From NCBI RefSeq assembly GCF_018390695.1, contig NZ_JAHBGF010000046.1, forward strand, positions 1-64,000: a stretch of 64,000 bases of DNA, given 5' to 3'. Numbering within the stretch: the stretch's first letter is position 1; every line of letters begins with the position of its first letter. The position numbers were made by a program, and so were the translations under genes. Positions 22,365 through 30,596 of the stretch are shown here, in pieces. The notes under the pieces are model-generated. The model had not been told where the DNA came from, did not search any database, and saw nothing but the letters and a program-made list of their open reading frames with translations. Origin of the DNA: Ancylobacter sonchi. Its GTDB lineage: Bacteria; Pseudomonadota; Alphaproteobacteria; Rhizobiales; Xanthobacteraceae.

Positions 22365-22574
22365 GATTCATCCTCCCGATGGCCGGGCATGATTAGGCCG
22401 GCGGGAGCCGGACGCGCAAGTTCTTCGCCGTGCGATGATCCGGATTGACGCCAGGCTGACCCTAGGTAAATCGAAGGCCGCCGCCCCGGATTTCCTCGAC
22501 AGCGCAAAGGCGGGTTGCTAACCGGGATGCCACGTCCTGAAGCCTCCCAGAAGCCGATTCCAGCGAGGAAACTG

Positions 22575-23999
22575 ATGACGAAGCCGTTCGCGTTGCTGGC
22601 GGCGCTGTGCGCCCTGATGACCGCCAGCCCGGCGCTGGCCGCCGAGGGCGCCGGCCTCGACGGGGCGAGCCTGTCGCTGGCCTGGGGCATTCCCTTCGCC
22701 GGCATGCTGCTCTCCATCGCCATCATGCCGCTGGTCGCCGGGCATTTCTGGCATCACCACTATGGCAAGGTGGCGCTGTTCTGGGCGCTGGCGGTGCTGG
22801 TGCCCTTCGTGGCGTTCGCCGGCACCGGCGTCACCGTCTACGAGGTGATGCACGCGGCGCTGCTGGAATACATTCCCTTCATCATCCTCCTGTTCACGCT
22901 GTTCACCATTTCCGGCGGCATCCTCGTCACCGGCAACCTGCATGGCAGCCCAACGGTGAACACCGCGCTGCTGGCGATCGGCACCGTGCTGGCCAGCCTG
23001 ATCGGCACCACCGGCGCCTCCATGGTGCTGATCCGCCCGCTGCTGCGCGCCAATGACGGGCGGCGGCACAATGTCCACACCGTGGTGTTCTTCATCTTCC
23101 TCGTGTCGAACATCGGCGGCTCGCTGACCCCGCTCGGCGATCCGCCGCTGTTCCTCGGCTTCCTGAAGGGCGTCGACTTCTTCTGGACGACCAGCCACCT
23201 GTTCCACGACACCGTGCTGGTGGTGGTGCTGCTGCTCGCCGCCTATTACCTGCTCGACCGCTGGTTCCACGCCCGCGAGGAGGGCCGGCCGCCCAAGCAC
23301 GACCCGACCCCCACCACCGAGCGCATCGGCCTGCGCGGACTTGCCAACCTGCCGCTGCTCGCGGGCGTGATCGGCGCCATCCTGTTGAGCGCGCTGTGGA
23401 AGCCGGACATCGAGTTCAACGTCGCCGGCACCCCGCTGCCGCTGCCCTCGGTGCTGCGCGACCTGATCCTGCTGGCGCTGGCCGGCGTCTCGATCTGGAT
23501 CACCCCGGCGTTCATCCGCGAGCGCAACGGCTTCGACTGGGAGCCGATCCGCGAGGTGGCCAAGCTGTTCGCGGCAATCTTCCTCACCATCATCCCGGTG
23601 ATCGCCATATTGAAGGCGGGGGCGAACGGCGCGCTCGCCCCGCTGGTCGCGCTGGTGACGGACGCCAATGGCGAGCCGGTGAATGCCGGCTATTTCTGGA
23701 TGACCGGCCTGTTGTCCGGCTTCCTCGACAACGCCCCGACCTATCTGGTGTTCTTCAACCTCGCCGGCGGCGACGCTCAGACACTGATGACCACCCATGC
23801 GGTGACGCTGGAGGCGATCTCGGCCGGCGCGGTGTTCATGGGCGCACTCACCTATATCGGCAACGCGCCGAATTTCATGGTGCTGGCCATCGCCCGCAGC
23901 CGCGGGGTGAGGATGCCGAGCTTCTTCGGCTACATGGTGTGGTCGGGCGTCTTCCTGCTGCCCTGCTTCGCGCTGCTTACCTTCCTGTATTTCCGCTGA
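22575..23999 (+). CDS. Sodium:proton antiporter, NhaD-like (ion transporter superfamily)
   Basis: A 474-residue membrane protein with a cleavable-looking start (MTKPFALLAALCALMTASPALAAE shortened here to the signal segment ALLAALCALMTASPALAA) and about 11-12 further hydrophobic segments. Conserved pieces are LTPLGDPPLFLGFLKGVDF, SGFLDNAPTYLVFFN and GALTYIGNAPNFMVLAI, the paired re-entrant motifs of the IT superfamily in which NhaD and citrate/arsenite carriers fall. NhaD-type Na/H exchange is the best guess; the substrate is not certain. The ATG at 22575 follows GAGGAAACTG; upstream in-frame ATGs lack protein character. Divergent from recR. Confidence 0.8.
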   Translation: MTKPFALLAALCALMTASPALAAEGAGLDGASLSLAWGIPFAGMLLSIAIMPLVAGHFWHHHYGKVALFWALAVLVPFVAFAGTGVTVYEVMHAALLEYIPFIILLFTLFTISGGILVTGNLHGSPTVNTALLAIGTVLASLIGTTGASMVLIRPLLRANDGRRHNVHTVVFFIFLVSNIGGSLTPLGDPPLFLGFLKGVDFFWTTSHLFHDTVLVVVLLLAAYYLLDRWFHAREEGRPPKHDPTPTTERIGLRGLANLPLLAGVIGAILLSALWKPDIEFNVAGTPLPLPSVLRDLILLALAGVSIWITPAFIRERNGFDWEPIREVAKLFAAIFLTIIPVIAILKAGANGALAPLVALVTDANGEPVNAGYFWMTGLLSGFLDNAPTYLVFFNLAGGDAQTLMTTHAVTLEAISAGAVFMGALTYIGNAPNFMVLAIARSRGVRMPSFFGYMVWSGVFLLPCFALLTFLYFR

Positions 24000-24080: not shown

Positions 24081-24617
24081 TCAGGACGAGGTGCCGGCAA
24101 AGCGGGCGCGGAACCAGTCGGCGATCATCGCCCGCTCATAGCGCAGCGGCTCGCCGGAGCGCGCCGCGCGCGGGTTCATCAGGTAGTTCATCGAGCGCAG
24201 CGTCTCTTCGCCGCGCCCGACCACCCGGCCGTCGCGGACCAGCCGGTAGCGCAGGGTGAGCGAGGGCCAGGTGTCGGCGCGCATCACCCTGAGCTCGCCG
24301 GTGCGCGAGGCGAGGGGATCGATCTTGCCAGCGAGGTCGAGGGCGAGGATGTCGACCTCCATCGCGGTGCCCGGCGGCAGGGCGCGGCGGGCCTCGCGGT
24401 CGAAGATGCGCGACAGTCCCTCGAAGGTGAGGCGCTGGTCGACCGGCGACCATTCGAGATTGCCGTCGACATAGCCTTGCGGGGCGATGAAATTCACCCG
24501 CGCCGTGGCGGGGGCCGCCGCAGCGGCGGGCGAGATGCCGGCCGGGGTGGCGCTCGCGGGACCGGCGGCGACCAGCGCCGCCAGCAGCGTCAGGACGGAA
24601 AGGCGTGTCGGGCGCAT
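24081..24617 (-). CDS. DUF3016 secreted protein
   Basis: A 178-residue protein with a signal peptide (LSVLTLLAALVAAGPASA) and a DUF3016-type body: VNFIAPQGYVDGN, LPPGTAMEVDILALDLAG, LRVMRADTWPSLTLRYRLV and the closing YERAMIADWFRARF. Members are periplasmic or lipoprotein-like; their function is unknown. It is the last gene on the minus strand after the PckA homologue, 64 bases downstream, and could share its transcript. Family call is moderately firm; role not known. Confidence 0.75.
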   Translation of the reverse strand: MRPTRLSVLTLLAALVAAGPASATPAGISPAAAAAPATARVNFIAPQGYVDGNLEWSPVDQRLTFEGLSRIFDREARRALPPGTAMEVDILALDLAGKIDPLASRTGELRVMRADTWPSLTLRYRLVRDGRVVGRGEETLRSMNYLMNPRAARSGEPLRYERAMIADWFRARFAGTSS

Positions 24618-24681: not shown

Positions 24682-26250
24682 TCATTCGGCGGCGATGGCC
24701 ATGCGCGGCTGGGCCTCGCGGACCTCCGGATCGACCTCGGCCTCGAAGCGGGCGAAGTTCTCCGCGAACATGCCGACGAGGCGCTTGGCGGCCACCGCGT
24801 GGTCGCGGCGATTGGCCCAGGCCCCGACGGGATCGAGCAGCTTCGCCTCGACGCCTTCGACTTCCACCGGCACCTCGAAGCCGAAATGCGGATCGGGGCG
24901 GAACGCGCCCGCCGCCAGCGAGCCGTCGAGCGCGGCGGCGACGAGAATGTGCGAGGCTTCCGACGGGATGCGGGCGCCGCGTCCGGCTTGGCCGCCGCTC
25001 CAGCCGGTATTCACCAGCCAGCAGACGGTGTCGCCGTCGGCGATCAGCTCGCGCAGCAGATGCGCGCCGGGCGCCGGGTGGCGGTCGGGAGCGAAGCGCG
25101 CGCGCGGCGCGCCGTCTTCGGCCGGAGCGGTGTAGCCCGACAGAAGGTGATAGACCGCCTGTTCCGGGCTGAGCCGGGCGATGGCCGGCAGCACGCCGAA
25201 GCCGTCGCAACTGACCAGGAACAGCGTGCGCGGCGCGCCGGCGCGGCCGGGCTCGACGCCGGGCAGCACCGCCCGCGCGGCGGGGGCGGCGGACAGGTCC
25301 GGCTCGCGGCTGTCGGCATCCAGCGGCACGTTCTCCAGTATGGTGCCGAAGCCGCCCCTGGCGTCGAGAGTGTGTATCCGCCGGCGGCGGCCGACGAACA
25401 GGCCGAACACGCCGTCCCGGCTCCAGCCCAGCGGGCCGTCGGCGATCAGGACGAAACGCGGATCGGCGGTGAGAGTGCCGGCCAGCGCGCTCTTGCCGCT
25501 GTCCGCCGGGCCGAGGAACAGGGTGAGCCCGCCCTCGGCATCAAGCGCGGCGGCACCGCTCAGCGTCAGCGCGCCGGCACCGGCCAGCACGTCGCCGGCC
25601 AGCACGTCGCCGACATGGGCGACCAGCGCCTGCTCGACATGGCCGAGATCGAGCGTGCCGGTGACCAGCAGCAGGCCGGCCTCCGTGTCCTCGGCGATCA
25701 GGCCGGGGCCGGCGATGCCGTGGCGGTCGGCATCCGGCCGGAACGCCGGCAGGCAGAACAGGGTGACGTCCGGCACGAAGCTACCGATGCTCTCGCGCTC
25801 GGACGCCTGCATCAGGTTGCGGATGGCGAGCGCGTGCCAGGCATGTTCGGTGAACACCCGCAGCCGGCGGATCCGGCCGGGGGCGATCGCCACATGCAGG
25901 TCCTGCGCGAACAAGGTGCGGCCGGAGGCATGGGCGAGCATGTCGTCGCGCAGCACGTCGAACGCCGCGCGACCGAGCAAGGCCGTGCCTTCCGACGCCG
26001 TGCCTTCCGGCGCCGCGCCTTCCGACGCTTCGGCCGGCTCGCCGACCCGATGCCGCGTCAGCGGCGCCGCGCCGGACGCGGTGCCGCTCTCGACCACCAG
26101 CGCGCCGGTGGCGGACAGACGGGCCTCGCCGCGGGCGATGGCGCGTTCGTAAAGCGTGGGGCCGGCAAGGTTCCAGAACACCTTGCCCGAACCGGAGAGA
26201 CCCGCAGCGGCTGCCGCGTTCTCCTGGTTGCGCATGCCGGTTTCCAGCAT
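24682..26250 (-). CDS. PEP carboxykinase (ATP) homologue lacking catalytic residues
   Basis: A 522-residue PckA homologue. Conserved blocks remain: RRLRVFTEHAWHALAIRNLM, ILENVPLD, LVSCDGFGVLPAIARLSPEQ, AVYHLLSGYTA and VCWLVNTGWSGG. Key positions of E. coli PckA are changed. GRSPKDK (Arg65) reads GAAPLTR; the GEMKKGM metal-lysine block and the MHCSAN histidine block are not recognisable; the P-loop GLSGTGKTTLS reads GPADSGKSALA (Lys253 kept); LIGDDEHGW reads LIADGPLGW, losing the metal-binding Asp269. Gluconeogenic activity is therefore doubtful; it may be a nucleotide-binding pseudoenzyme. Small in-frame tandem repeats (25581-25610 and about 25985-26035) support relaxed constraint. The start has an excellent AAGGAG, so it is probably expressed. 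It occupies the pckA place upstream of divergent chvI. Confidence 0.85.
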   Translation of the reverse strand: MLETGMRNQENAAAAAGLSGSGKVFWNLAGPTLYERAIARGEARLSATGALVVESGTASGAAPLTRHRVGEPAEASEGAAPEGTASEGTALLGRAAFDVLRDDMLAHASGRTLFAQDLHVAIAPGRIRRLRVFTEHAWHALAIRNLMQASERESIGSFVPDVTLFCLPAFRPDADRHGIAGPGLIAEDTEAGLLLVTGTLDLGHVEQALVAHVGDVLAGDVLAGAGALTLSGAAALDAEGGLTLFLGPADSGKSALAGTLTADPRFVLIADGPLGWSRDGVFGLFVGRRRRIHTLDARGGFGTILENVPLDADSREPDLSAAPAARAVLPGVEPGRAGAPRTLFLVSCDGFGVLPAIARLSPEQAVYHLLSGYTAPAEDGAPRARFAPDRHPAPGAHLLRELIADGDTVCWLVNTGWSGGQAGRGARIPSEASHILVAAALDGSLAAGAFRPDPHFGFEVPVEVEGVEAKLLDPVGAWANRRDHAVAAKRLVGMFAENFARFEAEVDPEVREAQPRMAIAAE

Positions 26251-26343
26251 GTGTTACTCCTTCTCGTCATATCCGCCGGGCGGCAAACTGACGGAGCACT
26301 CGGGCCATTTGTCTGTCATACAGGGTCGAAACCATGGCGAAAC

Positions 26344-26391: not shown

Positions 26392-27195
26392 TCAGTGATG
26401 GTCGTGCTGGTGCTCGTCGGCGGGCGCGTCGCCGTCGCGGCGCCGGGCCGGCACGCCGGCGATTTCGCGAGCCTTCACCGCGAGTTCGACCAGGACGCGG
26501 TGGACGTCGTGGGCGCCCGTGATGCGCCGGCCGAAGGGCAGTCGGCGCGCCTCGTGGCCGCGGACGAGGTCGCAGCCTTCCGGGTCGATGCCGGTCATGC
26601 GCCAGTCGCCGGCCGCCGCGCCGAGCAGCGCCGTGGCGTAGAGGCCGATGGCGTCGGCATGGTCCTCGTTCATATGCGCGATGGCGCCTTCCTCGCTCGC
26701 CAGTGCCTCCCCGGCGCCGGACAGGTCGGTGAGGAAATCGGCAGCCGGCACCTCGGCGATGCGGCCGAAGCCGGCGACCAGATGCGCGCTCTCCAGCTCG
26801 ATGCGGTAGAAGGCGAAGTCCTTGAAGTCGGCGAAGCCGGCCGAATCGGCGTGGCGGGCGAGGAAGCGGCGCCGGGCGGTGGCGATCTCAGCCTCGCCCT
26901 CGACGCGGAAGATGTGCCCCTTGAGGCTGGCGCGCGAGCCCTGCAGCTCGTCGCCCTCGCGGCGCTCGTCGACCAGAAGGCTGACGCGGCGGTCGCCGGC
27001 GATGTTGCGGGTGTGGCGGGCGAGCTGCGACAGCAGCAGCACCGGGGCGCCGTCATGCAGGCTCGCCACCTGCACCAGCGAGGCATAGGGCCAGCCGTCG
27101 CGATCGAGGCTGGCGAGCGCGCCGGTGCGGGCCTCGCGCAGCAGGCGCTTCACCGTGGCGGCGGCATCGAAACCGGAGGCGTTCATGTCGTTCAT
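26392..27195 (-). CDS. HugZ-family / pyridoxamine-oxidase-fold protein with His-rich tail
   Basis: A 267-residue cytoplasmic protein. Residues 10-150 are a flavin- or heme-binding split barrel (LLREARTGALASLDRDGWPY, HTRNIAGDRRVSLLVD, FYRIELESAHLVAGFG). Residues 165-245 are the DUF2470-like C-terminal domain (IAHMNEDHADAIGLYA, MTGIDPEGCDLV). The protein ends DEHQHDHH, a short histidine cluster that could bind metal or heme. HugZ-type proteins degrade or handle heme; relatives have unknown roles. The ATG at 27195 follows GGGAGACC. It sits between chvI (divergent) and the PckA homologue. Confidence 0.8.
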   Translation of the reverse strand: MNDMNASGFDAAATVKRLLREARTGALASLDRDGWPYASLVQVASLHDGAPVLLLSQLARHTRNIAGDRRVSLLVDERREGDELQGSRASLKGHIFRVEGEAEIATARRRFLARHADSAGFADFKDFAFYRIELESAHLVAGFGRIAEVPAADFLTDLSGAGEALASEEGAIAHMNEDHADAIGLYATALLGAAAGDWRMTGIDPEGCDLVRGHEARRLPFGRRITGAHDVHRVLVELAVKAREIAGVPARRRDGDAPADEHQHDHH

Positions 27196-27473
27196 GGGAA
27201 GGTCTCCCGCGTGGCTTTCCCGGCCGACTGTCTCAGTGACGAAGCCCGGCCGCAGCGTCAAGTGCGAGCCCCTGCCACACGGGACCGGCGGGCATTTTCG
27301 CACGCCCGACACGGAAGTTTGCGCCCGTCATCCCCACCCCTGCGGGCCGGCGCATTGGCTAACCGCTTCGAAACGCGCTATTTCTATCTGAGTCTGCTTG
27401 CGTGTCACATTCTGGCCACGCCAGCACGGTTCACCGCCGGTTGCGACATCCGCCGCCGAACAGGAACATGTAG

Positions 27474-28172
27474 ATGCCGACCATCGCTCTCGTCGACGAC
27501 GACCGCAATATCCTGACTTCCGTCTCGATCGCCCTCGAATCCGAAGGTTACCGCATCCAGACCTATACGGACGGCGCCACCGCGCTCGACGGCTTCAAGA
27601 GCAACCCGCCCGACCTCGCCATCTTCGACATCAAGATGCCGCGCATGGACGGCATGGAGCTGCTGCGCCGCCTGCGCCAGAAGAGCGACATGCCGGTGAT
27701 CTTCCTCACCTCCAAGGACGACGAGATCGACGAATTGTTCGGCCTGAAGATGGGCGCCGACGACTTCATCAAGAAGCCGTTCTCGCAGCGCCTGCTGGTC
27801 GAGCGGGTCAAGGCGGTGCTGCGCCGCGTCGCCCCCAAGGACGGCACCGCGCCGCGCGAGACCGACAGCGCCAAGGTGCTGGAGCGCGGCCTGCTGCGCA
27901 TGGATCCCGAGCGCCACACCTGCACCTGGAAGGGCGAGAACGTGACGCTGACCGTCACGGAGTTCCTCATCCTGCAGGCGCTCGCCACCCGCCCCGGCGT
28001 GGTAAAGAGCCGCAACGCGCTGATGGACGCCGCCTATGACGATCAGGTCTATGTCGACGACCGCACCATCGACAGCCACATCAAGCGGCTTCGCAAGAAG
28101 TTCAAGGTGACGGACGACAATTTCGAGATGATCGAGACCCTGTACGGCGTCGGCTATCGCTTCAAGGAGTAG
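27474..28172 (+). CDS. chvI: Response regulator ChvI
   Basis: A 232-residue OmpR-family regulator. The receiver domain has the acidic pair (LVDDDRN), phosphoacceptor Asp in [13 protein letters not shown], Thr/Ser in IFLTSKDDE and Lys in IKKPFSQ. The C-terminal winged helix runs from about 135 to the end ([29 protein letters not shown]). ChvI acts with ChvG and, in rhizobia, the periplasmic inhibitor ExoR, in the response to acid and host/envelope signals. AGGA precedes the ATG. chvG starts 8 bases after its stop, so the pair is one operon. Confidence 0.97.
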
Positions 28173-28179
28173 GCGGCTC

Positions 28180-30087
28180 GTGCTCGACCCGGAGCAGACG
28201 CGCAACCTGCCGCCCGGCGAGGACCCGGAGGAGCAGGATGACGGCGCGCCCGAGACGTCGATGCCGGCCGAGGCGCGCCGGCGCGGCGGCGTGGCGGGCG
28301 CGCTCGGCGCCGGCCTGCTCAGCGGCCTGCGCCGGCTGAAGCATTTCGTCGAGCAGAAGAGTTCGTCGAGCCTCACCCGCCGCATCGTGTTGCTCAACCT
28401 CGCCGGCATGGGCGCGCTGGTGGCGGGCATCCTCTATCTGTCGGAGTTCCGCGCCGGGCTGATCGACGCGCGGGTGCAGAGCCTGCTGGTGCAGGGCGAG
28501 ATCATCGCCGGCGCCATCGCCGCCTCGGCGCAGGTCGATTCCAACGCCATCACCATCGATCCCGAGCGGTTGCTGGAATTGCAGGCCGGCGAGAGCTACG
28601 GGCCGGGCGAGGAAGGCTTCGCGCCGCTGGAGTTCCCGATCAACCCGGAGCGGGTCGCCCCGGTGCTGAAGCGTCTCGTCGAGCCGACCGGCACCCGCGC
28701 CCGCATCTATGACCGCGACGGCATCCTCCTGCTCGATTCGCGCTCGCTCTATTCGCGCGGCGAGATCCTGCGCTTCGAATTGCCCGAGCCGACCGCGCGC
28801 CAGCCGAACTGGATGGAGCACGGCTGGAACAGCATGAAGATGTGGTTCGAGCGCGGCGACCTGCCAGTCTATCACGAGCTCGGGCCGAACAACGGCAAGG
28901 GCTACCCGCAAGTGGTGGACGCGCTGCTCGGCCAGAAGGCCAGCGCCGTGCAGGTGAATGAGCGCGGCCAGATCATCGTCTCGGTGGCGGTGCCGGTGCA
29001 GCGCTTCCGCGCCATCCTCGGCGCGCTGCTGCTCTCCACCCAGGGCGGCGAGATCGACGAGGCGGTGGCGGCCGAGCGGCTGGTCATCGTGCGGGTGTTC
29101 GTCGTCGCCATGGTGGTGATGGTGGTGCTGTCGCTGCTGCTCGCCGGCACCATCGCCGGCCCGGTGCGCCGGCTCGCCGATGCCGCCGAGCGCGTGCGGC
29201 GCAGGACGCGCCAGCGCGTCGAGATCCCCGACTTCACCGGCCGCTCCGACGAGATCGGCCATTTGTCGGGCGCCCTGCGCGACATGACCGACGCACTCTA
29301 TTCGCGCATTGAGGCGATCGAGAGCTTCGCCGCCGACGTCTCGCACGAATTGAAGAACCCGCTGACCTCGCTGCGCTCCGCCGTCGAGACGCTGCCGCTC
29401 GCCAAGAACGACAATTCGCGCGGCCGGCTGATGGAGGTGATCCAGCACGACGTGAAGCGGCTCGACCGGCTGATCACCGACATTTCCGACGCCTCGCGCC
29501 TCGATGCCGAATTGCAGCGCCAGGAGGCCGAGGCGGTCGATTTGCGTCGCCTGCTCGGCACGGTGTGCGGCGTGCAGAACGACGTGGTGCGTGGCGACGA
29601 CGTGAAGGTGAAGCTCAGCTTCGAGCCGGAGGTCGAGGGCGGCAAGCCGGTGCCCTTCGTGGTGCAGGGCCACGATTCCCGCCTTGGGCAGGTGATCAAC
29701 AACCTGATCGACAATGCCCGCTCCTTCTCGCCCAAGGGCGGCGAGGTGCGGGTGGCCTGCCACAAGGTGAAGGGCGGGGTGGAGATCATCGTCGACGACG
29801 AAGGGCCGGGCATTCCCGAGCACGCGCTCGCCCGCATCTTCGAGCGCTTCTACACCGATCGGCCGGAGGAGCAGGGCTTCGGGCAGAATTCCGGCCTCGG
29901 CCTGTCGATCTCCAAGCAGATCGTCGAGGCGCATGGCGGGCGGATCTGGGCCGAGAACCGCGCCCCCGCCCCGCCGCCGCCGGAGCCCGAGCCGGCCGAG
30001 GGCGCGCCGCCGCGCAAGCGCCGCCGCCCGGCGAAGAAAGGGGCGAGCGGCGGGGCGCGCTTCATCGTAAGGCTGCCCTGCACATGA
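28180..30087 (+). CDS. chvG: Sensor histidine kinase ChvG (ExoS)
   Basis: A 635-residue membrane kinase starting at GTG 28180, with AAGGAG spanning the chvI stop. TM1 is at about 70-90 (IVLLNLAGMGALVAGILYL), followed by a periplasmic sensor of about 210 residues, TM2 at about 305-330 and a HAMP. The H-box is ADVSHELKNPLTSL (His autophosphorylation); N- and G-boxes are VINNLIDNARSF and VDDEGPGIPEHAL. Near the C-terminus, between GGRIWAENR and ARFIVRLP, is an insertion of about 35 residues rich in Pro and then Arg/Lys. Pairs with ChvI; in rhizobia the ExoS homologue governs exopolysaccharide and envelope genes. Confidence 0.97.
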   Translation: MLDPEQTRNLPPGEDPEEQDDGAPETSMPAEARRRGGVAGALGAGLLSGLRRLKHFVEQKSSSSLTRRIVLLNLAGMGALVAGILYLSEFRAGLIDARVQSLLVQGEIIAGAIAASAQVDSNAITIDPERLLELQAGESYGPGEEGFAPLEFPINPERVAPVLKRLVEPTGTRARIYDRDGILLLDSRSLYSRGEILRFELPEPTARQPNWMEHGWNSMKMWFERGDLPVYHELGPNNGKGYPQVVDALLGQKASAVQVNERGQIIVSVAVPVQRFRAILGALLLSTQGGEIDEAVAAERLVIVRVFVVAMVVMVVLSLLLAGTIAGPVRRLADAAERVRRRTRQRVEIPDFTGRSDEIGHLSGALRDMTDALYSRIEAIESFAADVSHELKNPLTSLRSAVETLPLAKNDNSRGRLMEVIQHDVKRLDRLITDISDASRLDAELQRQEAEAVDLRRLLGTVCGVQNDVVRGDDVKVKLSFEPEVEGGKPVPFVVQGHDSRLGQVINNLIDNARSFSPKGGEVRVACHKVKGGVEIIVDDEGPGIPEHALARIFERFYTDRPEEQGFGQNSGLGLSISKQIVEAHGGRIWAENRAPAPPPPEPEPAEGAPPRKRRRPAKKGASGGARFIVRLPCT

Positions 30088-30110: not shown

Positions 30111-30596
30111 ATGACCGAGGACGGACCGATCGCCGGTACCCATCGCAGTTCCACCCACCACGCCTCCTGCGTGCGGGTGGGCGAGGCCGGGGTGCTGATC
30201 CGCGGGCCGTCCGGCGCCGGCAAGTCGCATCTCGCTTTCGCGCTGATCCTCGCCGGGCGTACCGGCCTCATCCCGGAGACGGTGCTGGTCGGCGACGACC
30301 GGCTGGTGCTGGAGCGGCGCGGGGATGGGCTGTTCGCCGCCCCGGTGCCGGCGCTCGCCGGCCTCCTCGAGGTGCGCGGCGCCGGGCTGCGCCGGCTGCC
30401 CTATGTCGCGGAAGTCGAGGTGGCGCTGGTGGTCGACCTCCACACGCCCGACGGCGCGCGGATGCCGCGCCCGGAGGATTGCCGCCTCGCGATCGGCGGC
30501 GTCACGCTCACCCGGCTACCGGTCTACGACCGCGGCGATGCGGTGCACCAAGTGCTGGCGATGCTCTCCACCGAGGCCGCGCTTCAGGAAACTTAA
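30111..30596 (+). CDS. hprK: HPr kinase/phosphorylase (short alphaproteobacterial form)
   Basis: A 161-residue protein with only the catalytic domain, as usual in alphaproteobacteria; the N-terminal domain of the Gram-positive enzyme is missing. Walker A is GPSGAGKSHLAFALI and the HPrK signature is ARMPRPEDCRLAIGGVTLTR. It phosphorylates or dephosphorylates the regulatory Ser of HPr, encoded just downstream. It follows chvG by 23 bases with GGGAGGGAACCTGG before the ATG, so it probably belongs to the same transcript. Confidence 0.95.
   Translation: MTEDGPIAGTHRSSTHHASCVRVGEAGVLIRGPSGAGKSHLAFALILAGRTGLIPETVLVGDDRLVLERRGDGLFAAPVPALAGLLEVRGAGLRRLPYVAEVEVALVVDLHTPDGARMPRPEDCRLAIGGVTLTRLPVYDRGDAVHQVLAMLSTEAALQET

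What the first reader, a model, noticed from the sequence alone, without database searches (positions are those of the whole stretch)
24682..26250. PckA homologue that has lost its catalytic residues at the conserved pckA-chvI locus
The protein aligns end to end with ATP-type PEP carboxykinase. By my alignment it has lost the substrate Arg65, the metal-binding Lys213, His232 and Asp269, and the KKG block, while keeping the P-loop Lys. It has an ideal ribosome-binding site and stays open over 522 codons, so it is not simply a pseudogene. In rhizobia pckA sits beside chvI/chvG; here a pseudoenzyme occupies that place, possibly with a signalling role.
Basis: partly seen in the sequence, partly recalled or inferred. 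Interest (0 to 1): 0.75.

Follow-up and report, generated by a model that had tools for sequence, protein, structure and literature searches.

The report
Repeatedly retired PckA kept as ATP-binder
In a group of soil bacteria the enzyme that normally starts sugar-making has lost its catalytic residues several separate times, yet the protein and most of its ATP-binding pocket are still kept by natural selection, which suggests a second job that has not been described.

Summary
Window 24682-26250 (-) encodes a full-length ATP-type PEP carboxykinase (PckA) homologue that lacks the substrate residues (E. coli R65, Y207), all three Mn ligands (K213, H232, D269) and K212, but keeps a P-loop, D268, R333, R449 and T455 (as Ser). 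It is the only PEPCK found in a 99.99%-complete genome. It is not an isolated oddity. The species tree needs 6 separate losses (4-7 in 1000 bootstrap trees), and one more occurs in another family. The degenerate genes are under strong purifying selection (dN/dS 0.05-0.29). The substrate/metal site is lost far below background; the nucleotide site is kept above background only if conservative exchanges count. PPDK-family and PEP carboxylase genes occur in all 30 genomes, so PckA catalysis is plausibly dispensable. Best reading: a conserved pseudoenzyme that kept a non-catalytic, ATP-binding role already present in the intact enzyme. That role, and any link to ChvG/ChvI, is inferred and untested.

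The parts
24682..26250 (-). pckA-derived pseudoenzyme (522 aa)
26257..26262 (-). ribosome-binding site AAGGAG
   Evidence: sequence; same context in G209 and G203, near-identical in G062
25489..25512 (-). retained P-loop GPADSGKS (E. coli 248-255); still fits the Walker A pattern although G251 is Asp
   Evidence: G248, G253 and S/T255 in 23 of 23, K254 in 21 of 23, G251 in 19 of 23 degenerate proteins
26392..27210 (-). HugZ/CREG-like gene (PF13883, PF10615, PF01243) between pckA and chvI, same strand as pckA
   Evidence: found in 30 of 30 genus genomes
27474..28172 (+). chvI response regulator
28180..30087 (+). chvG sensor kinase
30111..30596 (+). short hprK (PF07475), followed by PTS EIIA (manX) and HPr-type genes
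   Evidence: manX and HPr named by me from their sequence, not scanned
22515..23999 (+). CitMHS_2 transporter (PF16980), convergent neighbour of pckA
   Evidence: near pckA in 28 of 30 genus genomes and in the 3 degenerate genomes of a second genus
24081..24617 (-). DUF3016 protein just downstream of pckA
   Evidence: not detected in all genus genomes

Best explanation
The gene encodes a PckA pseudoenzyme: the PEP carboxykinase fold with a largely kept nucleotide pocket and no carboxykinase site. Model: in this genus PPDK supplies PEP and PEP carboxylase runs the opposite way, so PckA catalysis is dispensable or wasteful and has been lost about six times independently. The protein is retained because intact PckA already had a second, non-catalytic task that depends on the fold and on ATP/ADP binding, for example as an adenylate-responsive binding partner in central carbon or PTS/ChvG-ChvI regulation. 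Shown here: loss of catalytic residues, purifying selection, better retention of nucleotide-site than of substrate-site residues, parallel losses, no other PEPCK found, presence of PPDK-family and PEP carboxylase genes. Inferred: no carboxykinase activity, ATP binding itself, and a second task that predates the loss. Guessed: the partner.
Against: No activity, binding or phenotype data. Exact retention at the nucleotide sites (0.72) is not above background (P = 0.18); the signal rests on conservative changes. S250 is kept in only 30% and K288 exactly in none. The window's own clade has Asp at P-loop G251, and G207 and G186 lost K254, so ATP binding is unproven and doubtful in the latter. G198, G084 and G215 keep all three Mn ligands and might be weakly active. 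dN/dS is higher than in the neighbouring chvG (0.018-0.065 in the same pairs). The link to ChvG/ChvI is positional only, and intact PckA sits at the same place in relatives. The all-column gene tree favours fewer origins.
Confidence: 0.6

Rival explanations
1. A new enzyme: the retained P-loop, D268 and R333 serve a different ATP-dependent reaction (kinase or ATPase, as in the related HPr kinase fold).
For: D268, R333, R449 and T/S455 kept in 23 of 23, K254 in 21 of 23, and K288 became Arg in 20 of 23 across independent clades, so a phosphate-handling set may remain.
Against: The former substrate pocket differs between clades (position 65: P, T, R, A, L, G, E; position 207: H, N, D, L, E, R) and is no better kept within clades than the protein as a whole (0.67 against 0.70), so there is no shared new pocket.
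Confidence: 0.2
2. Slow decay: catalysis is no longer needed and the gene is on its way out, with selection only against misfolded or toxic products.
For: Graded PF01293 scores from 713 to 134 bits in one genus; dN/dS above that of chvG; no pckA match in 13 of 198 family genomes, some of them incomplete; pckA of B. abortus is broken while PPDK takes over (PMC5896264, passages).
Against: 30 of 30 frames are open; dN/dS stays at 0.085-0.159 in the six degenerate pairs with dS 1.2-2.6; the N-terminal 40 and the C-terminal 116 residues keep 0.78-1.18 of the identity seen among intact enzymes, against 0.42-0.89 elsewhere.
Confidence: 0.13
3. Still a PEP carboxykinase with rearranged catalytic residues.
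For: Three members (G198, G084, G215) keep all three Mn ligands and G385 of a second genus keeps two.
Against: 18 of 23 have no Mn ligand left and 20 of 23 no R65; the window protein scores below the cut-offs of all six NCBIfam PckA models it matches (387 against 806; 186 against 590).
Confidence: 0.04
4. One ancestral loss, followed by re-import of an intact pckA by homologous replacement in two lineages (G165; G136/G202/G211), instead of parallel losses.
For: With all columns the pck gene tree puts the 21 degenerate genes of the main clade together (constraint AU p 0.29), rejects G136/G202/G211 + G186/G207 as a clade (p 0.001) and rejects the species topology (p 4e-11).
Against: The 205 columns that vary even among intact enzymes reject the single degenerate clade (AU p 0.0146) and accept the grouping with G186/G207 (0.23); neighbours plus rpoB and PPDK reject it strongly; different residues are lost in different clades. 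Third positions do not decide (0.27 and 0.63).
Confidence: 0.12

Closest known systems
ATP-dependent PEP carboxykinase PckA (EC 4.1.1.49; PF01293; structures 1j3b/2pc9, 1aq2, 2pxz)
   Different: Substrate and Mn2+ residues R65, Y207, K212, K213, H232, D269 absent; short deletions, including the CFGAPF block.
Frameshifted pckA of Brucella abortus/melitensis with PPDK as the PEP source (PMC5896264, passages read)
   Same: Same locus, PckA function lost in B. abortus, PPDK carries PEP synthesis.
   Different: There the frame is broken; here it stays open and is under purifying selection over long divergence.
Metabolic pseudoenzymes in general (recalled)
   Same: Enzyme fold kept, catalysis lost, nucleotide site often retained for regulation.
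   Different: Here the loss recurs about six times in one genus with no intact paralogue found; no PEPCK pseudoenzyme turned up in the paper searches made.
HPr kinase/phosphorylase (PF07475), encoded just past chvI-chvG
   Same: P-loop fold distantly related to PckA (recalled), same gene cluster.
   Different: The window protein matches only PF01293 in Pfam.

Membership tests
ATP-dependent PEP carboxykinase (enzyme) | Sequence and fold homology over the whole length | tested here: met
ATP-dependent PEP carboxykinase (enzyme) | P-loop (kinase-1a) and adenine-site residues | tested here: met
   GPADSGKS fits Walker A (G251 is Asp); R449 kept, T455 as Ser
ATP-dependent PEP carboxykinase (enzyme) | Mn2+ ligands K213, H232, D269 | tested here: not met
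   Q, S, G in the window protein
ATP-dependent PEP carboxykinase (enzyme) | Substrate residues R65, Y207 and K212 | tested here: not met
   A, D, E
ATP-dependent PEP carboxykinase (enzyme) | NCBIfam equivalog/subfamily score cut-offs | tested here: not met
   387.1 against 806 (NF006822), 185.8 against 590 (TIGR00224); all six matching models below cut-off
ATP-dependent PEP carboxykinase (enzyme) | Oxaloacetate-to-PEP activity | not testable with these tools
   needs an assay
Pseudoenzyme | Homology to an enzyme with key catalytic residues absent | tested here: met
Pseudoenzyme | Gene maintained by selection, not a pseudogene | tested here: met
   dN/dS 0.095-0.163 against the three nearest relatives; 0.047-0.290 over 16 degenerate pairs
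Pseudoenzyme | A demonstrated non-catalytic function | not testable with these tools
   no expression, binding or phenotype data
HPr kinase/phosphorylase | Match to PF07475 | tested here: not met
   only PF01293 at E up to 0.001

The most novel reading that the evidence does not exclude
PckA of Rhizobiales is a two-function protein: besides making PEP it acts as an adenylate-dependent regulator or scaffold, which explains its conserved place near chvI-chvG-hprK-PTS. Lineages with PPDK repeatedly discard the chemistry and keep only the regulator, so the Starkeya/Ancylobacter group offers natural catalysis-dead variants that separate the two functions.
Probability: 0.3. Interest if true: 0.85.

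Novelty: new variant of a known kind. Interest (0 to 1): 0.7.

Why it matters
PckA is a textbook gluconeogenic enzyme, and its position near the ChvG/ChvI-HprK-PTS cluster is widely conserved without a reason known to me. Parallel loss of catalysis with the protein kept is a natural experiment: it points to a second function of a central metabolic enzyme and gives graded natural variants with which to find it. It also means that a homology-based 'pckA' call in this group would often assign a PEP-forming step that is probably absent.

Tried and rejected
Open frame as proof of function: rejected as weak. In eight pairs random placement of the observed substitutions left no stop in 60-275 of 500 runs.

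Degenerate pckA as a paralogue beside a true pckA: rejected. PF01293 gave a single gene per genome in 30 of 30 genus genomes; the second rows in 7 genomes are second pieces of the same frame.

Single origin of the degenerate form: rejected on species data and on columns free of catalytic constraint, but the full-column gene tree prefers it and third positions do not decide (deg21 p 0.27). The exact species topology is also rejected by both reduced data sets (p 0.002 and 0.008), so some incongruence remains unexplained. The count of losses assumes that lost residues are not regained and roots the tree on G206; no outgroup was in the species tree. rpoB was missing for G211 and G212, two neighbour genes for G198 and G200, and ahcY was short in G200.

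Low PF01293 scores elsewhere in the family: the 11 genomes checked have partial or split matches, not full-length degenerate copies; I did not inspect their residues. G217 and G460 also score lower and were not inspected.

Convergent replacements (M to L 23 of 23, S to A 22 of 23 at two columns, K288 to R 20 of 23, D269 to G 17 of 23) could mean a shared new function, but they look like mostly one-base changes; I did not model this.

E. coli numbering and the split into nucleotide and substrate/metal residues are recalled; PDB titles show that R65Q, Y207F, K212I/F216V, K213S, S250A, K254S and D269N mutants were made; a search for a paper on such residues gave nothing useful. The gene label nhaD in my scripts is the CitMHS_2 gene.

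Full report

Residues. In an alignment with 8 references and 30 genus proteins, numbered as in E. coli (numbering and roles recalled), the window protein has R65A, Y207D, K212E, K213Q, H232S, S250A, G251D, D269G, E270P, H271L and K288R. It keeps G253, K254, D268, R333 and R449 and G248, with Ser at T255 and T455.

Which organism. The genome G000 has 5.8 Mb in 47 contigs and the window lies on contig 41. Two genomes of the same genus have contigs of 4,765,023 and 6,286,188 bases. These are the chromosome lengths printed for Starkeya novella ATCC 8093 (PMC3570799, passages) and Starkeya sp. ORNL1 (PMC7330251, passages). The genus is thus most likely the Starkeya/Ancylobacter group of Xanthobacteraceae; the two so identified are both intact.

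Not an isolated case. All 30 genus genomes searched have exactly one pckA gene found, always with an uninterrupted frame, with PF01293 scores grading from 713 to 134 bits. Seven keep every catalytic residue; 23 do not. Of the 23, all lost Y207 and K288, 20 lost R65, 20 lost at least one Mn ligand and 18 lost all three. All 23 keep D268, R333 and R449 and have T or S at 255 and 455; 21 keep K254 (G207 and G186 do not). The gene order pckA, hugZ-like, chvI, chvG, hprK, manX, HPr is shared by 30 of 30, and the transporter on the other side is found in 28 of 30. So the degenerate genes are positional orthologues of true pckA. GTP-type PEPCK was found in 0 of 30. A PPDK_N-family protein is present in 30 of 30; the window genome's copy passes the NCBIfam pyruvate, phosphate dikinase cut-off (1222 against 843 bits), and homologues of it were recovered from all 30. 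PEP carboxylase is present in 30 of 30.

Selection. My pairwise codon likelihood gave dN/dS 0.047-0.290 for 16 degenerate pairs, with likelihood ratios against 1 of 63 to 281. Five intact pairs gave 0.030-0.111, and chvG in the same degenerate pairs 0.018-0.065. In eight pairs examined (six degenerate, two intact), third codon positions hold the most differences in each. The degenerate proteins mostly evolve faster than intact PckA but are clearly maintained.

What is kept. Over 200 columns invariant in 18 intact rows, the 23 degenerate proteins keep 63% on average. Six substrate/metal sites are kept at 12% (0 of 20,000 random draws as low). Eleven nucleotide sites are kept at 72% exactly (not above background, P = 0.18) and at 90% when S/T, K/R and D/E exchanges count as kept (P = 0.003). 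Within seven degenerate clades (41 pairs), the 11 nucleotide sites are 88% identical and the former substrate/metal sites 67%; the whole protein is 70% identical. Between eight degenerate representatives the N-terminal 40 residues and the C-terminal 116 keep 0.78-1.18 of the identity seen between four intact ones, against 0.42-0.89 elsewhere.

How often it happened. A tree of ten genes (rpoB, PPDK and eight neighbours; 4,687 columns) places intact lineages among degenerate ones; making the 21 main-clade degenerate species one clade is rejected (AU p 1.5e-50), as is one clade of all 23 (9e-5). Counting loss as irreversible and rooting on G206, the best tree needs 6 losses; 1000 bootstrap trees need 4 (23), 5 (177), 6 (464) or 7 (336). 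Against this, the pck gene tree from all columns prefers the 21 degenerate genes together, and pck data reject the species topology. That is what shared relaxation at formerly invariant columns could produce: the 205 columns that vary even among intact enzymes reject the single degenerate clade (p 0.0146) and recover G136/G202/G211 with G207, G186 and the eight-species clade; third positions do not decide. Some incongruence with the exact species topology remains.

A second case. In the order survey (397 genomes, 315 with a match), three species of another family, G385, G450 and G315, have a low-scoring pckA with an open frame, at the same hugZ-chvI locus. They show graded loss of catalytic residues (few in G385, most in G450 and G315) with K254, T/S255, R449 and T455 kept; in G315 R333 is Thr and D268 is Glu. 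In a quick tree they form one clade next to 10 high-scoring congeners, and 13 of 13 have PPDK_N-family matches.

Interpretation. Loss of PckA chemistry is understandable where PPDK makes PEP. In Brucella abortus the same gene is frameshifted and PPDK carries PEP synthesis (PMC5896264, passages). In S. novella PEP carboxylase was always among the more abundant proteins (PMC3797975, passages), so an active PckA could drive an ATP-wasting cycle (inference). What is not ordinary is that the protein, its fold and most of its nucleotide pocket are kept by selection after each loss. The simplest account is that intact PckA has a second, ATP-binding but non-catalytic task, and that the chemistry was shed repeatedly. 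The locus suggests a link to ChvG/ChvI or PTS control: in Brucella the cluster is conserved with pckA facing it (PMC2937029, passages), and the ChvI orthologue binds upstream of pckA (PMC9491525, passages). But that shows regulation of pckA by the system, not the reverse.

Novelty. Paper searches for PEPCK with pseudoenzyme (1 paper, on phosphoglycerate kinase), pckA with ChvI (12 listed, none about a degenerate PckA by title and abstract start), Ancylobacter with PEPCK (0), PEPCK with moonlighting, bacteria and pckA (9 listed, none about this by title and abstract start), PEP carboxykinase with catalytically inactive, homolog and pckA (1, on Chlamydia tryptophan depletion) and Ancylobacter with Starkeya and gluconeogenesis (2) found no description. 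The library holds open-licence papers only. I class it as a new variant of a known kind: a pseudoenzyme, of a family for which I found none described, arising in parallel.

Noticed in passing
window 22515-23999; L251, L252, L254: A CitMHS_2 transporter gene lies convergent to pckA in 28 of 30 genus genomes, intact and degenerate alike. In the second genus it is detected beside pckA in all 3 degenerate species and in 0 of 10 high-scoring ones within the fetched flank; a match lies in the flank of 3 of 80 named loci. It may mark lineages prone to lose PckA catalysis.
   Followed up: partly
L149 (G198) and L155 (G200): These two degenerate genomes lack matches to the recR and transporter neighbours found on the far side of pckA in the other 28.
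   Followed up: no
26250 in the window; pckA starts in L032-L060: The start codon that I inferred for pckA is TTG in 15, GTG in 7 and ATG in 8 of 30 genus genomes. Many of the TTG/GTG genes share a GGAGGAGCCGACC context, in intact and degenerate genes, while the window's clade has ATG after GAAGGAGTAACAC or nearly so.
   Followed up: no
L228, L246 (G155); L234, L240 (G002): In two other genera of the family pckA matches are split into two adjacent pieces, one in a single-contig genome: possible frameshifts, i.e. ordinary decay or sequencing error.
   Followed up: no
L152 (G207), L158 (G186) and the window's clade: G207 and G186 lost the P-loop Lys254 (T and A), the only degenerate species to do so; the window's four-species clade instead has Asp at P-loop G251.
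   Followed up: partly
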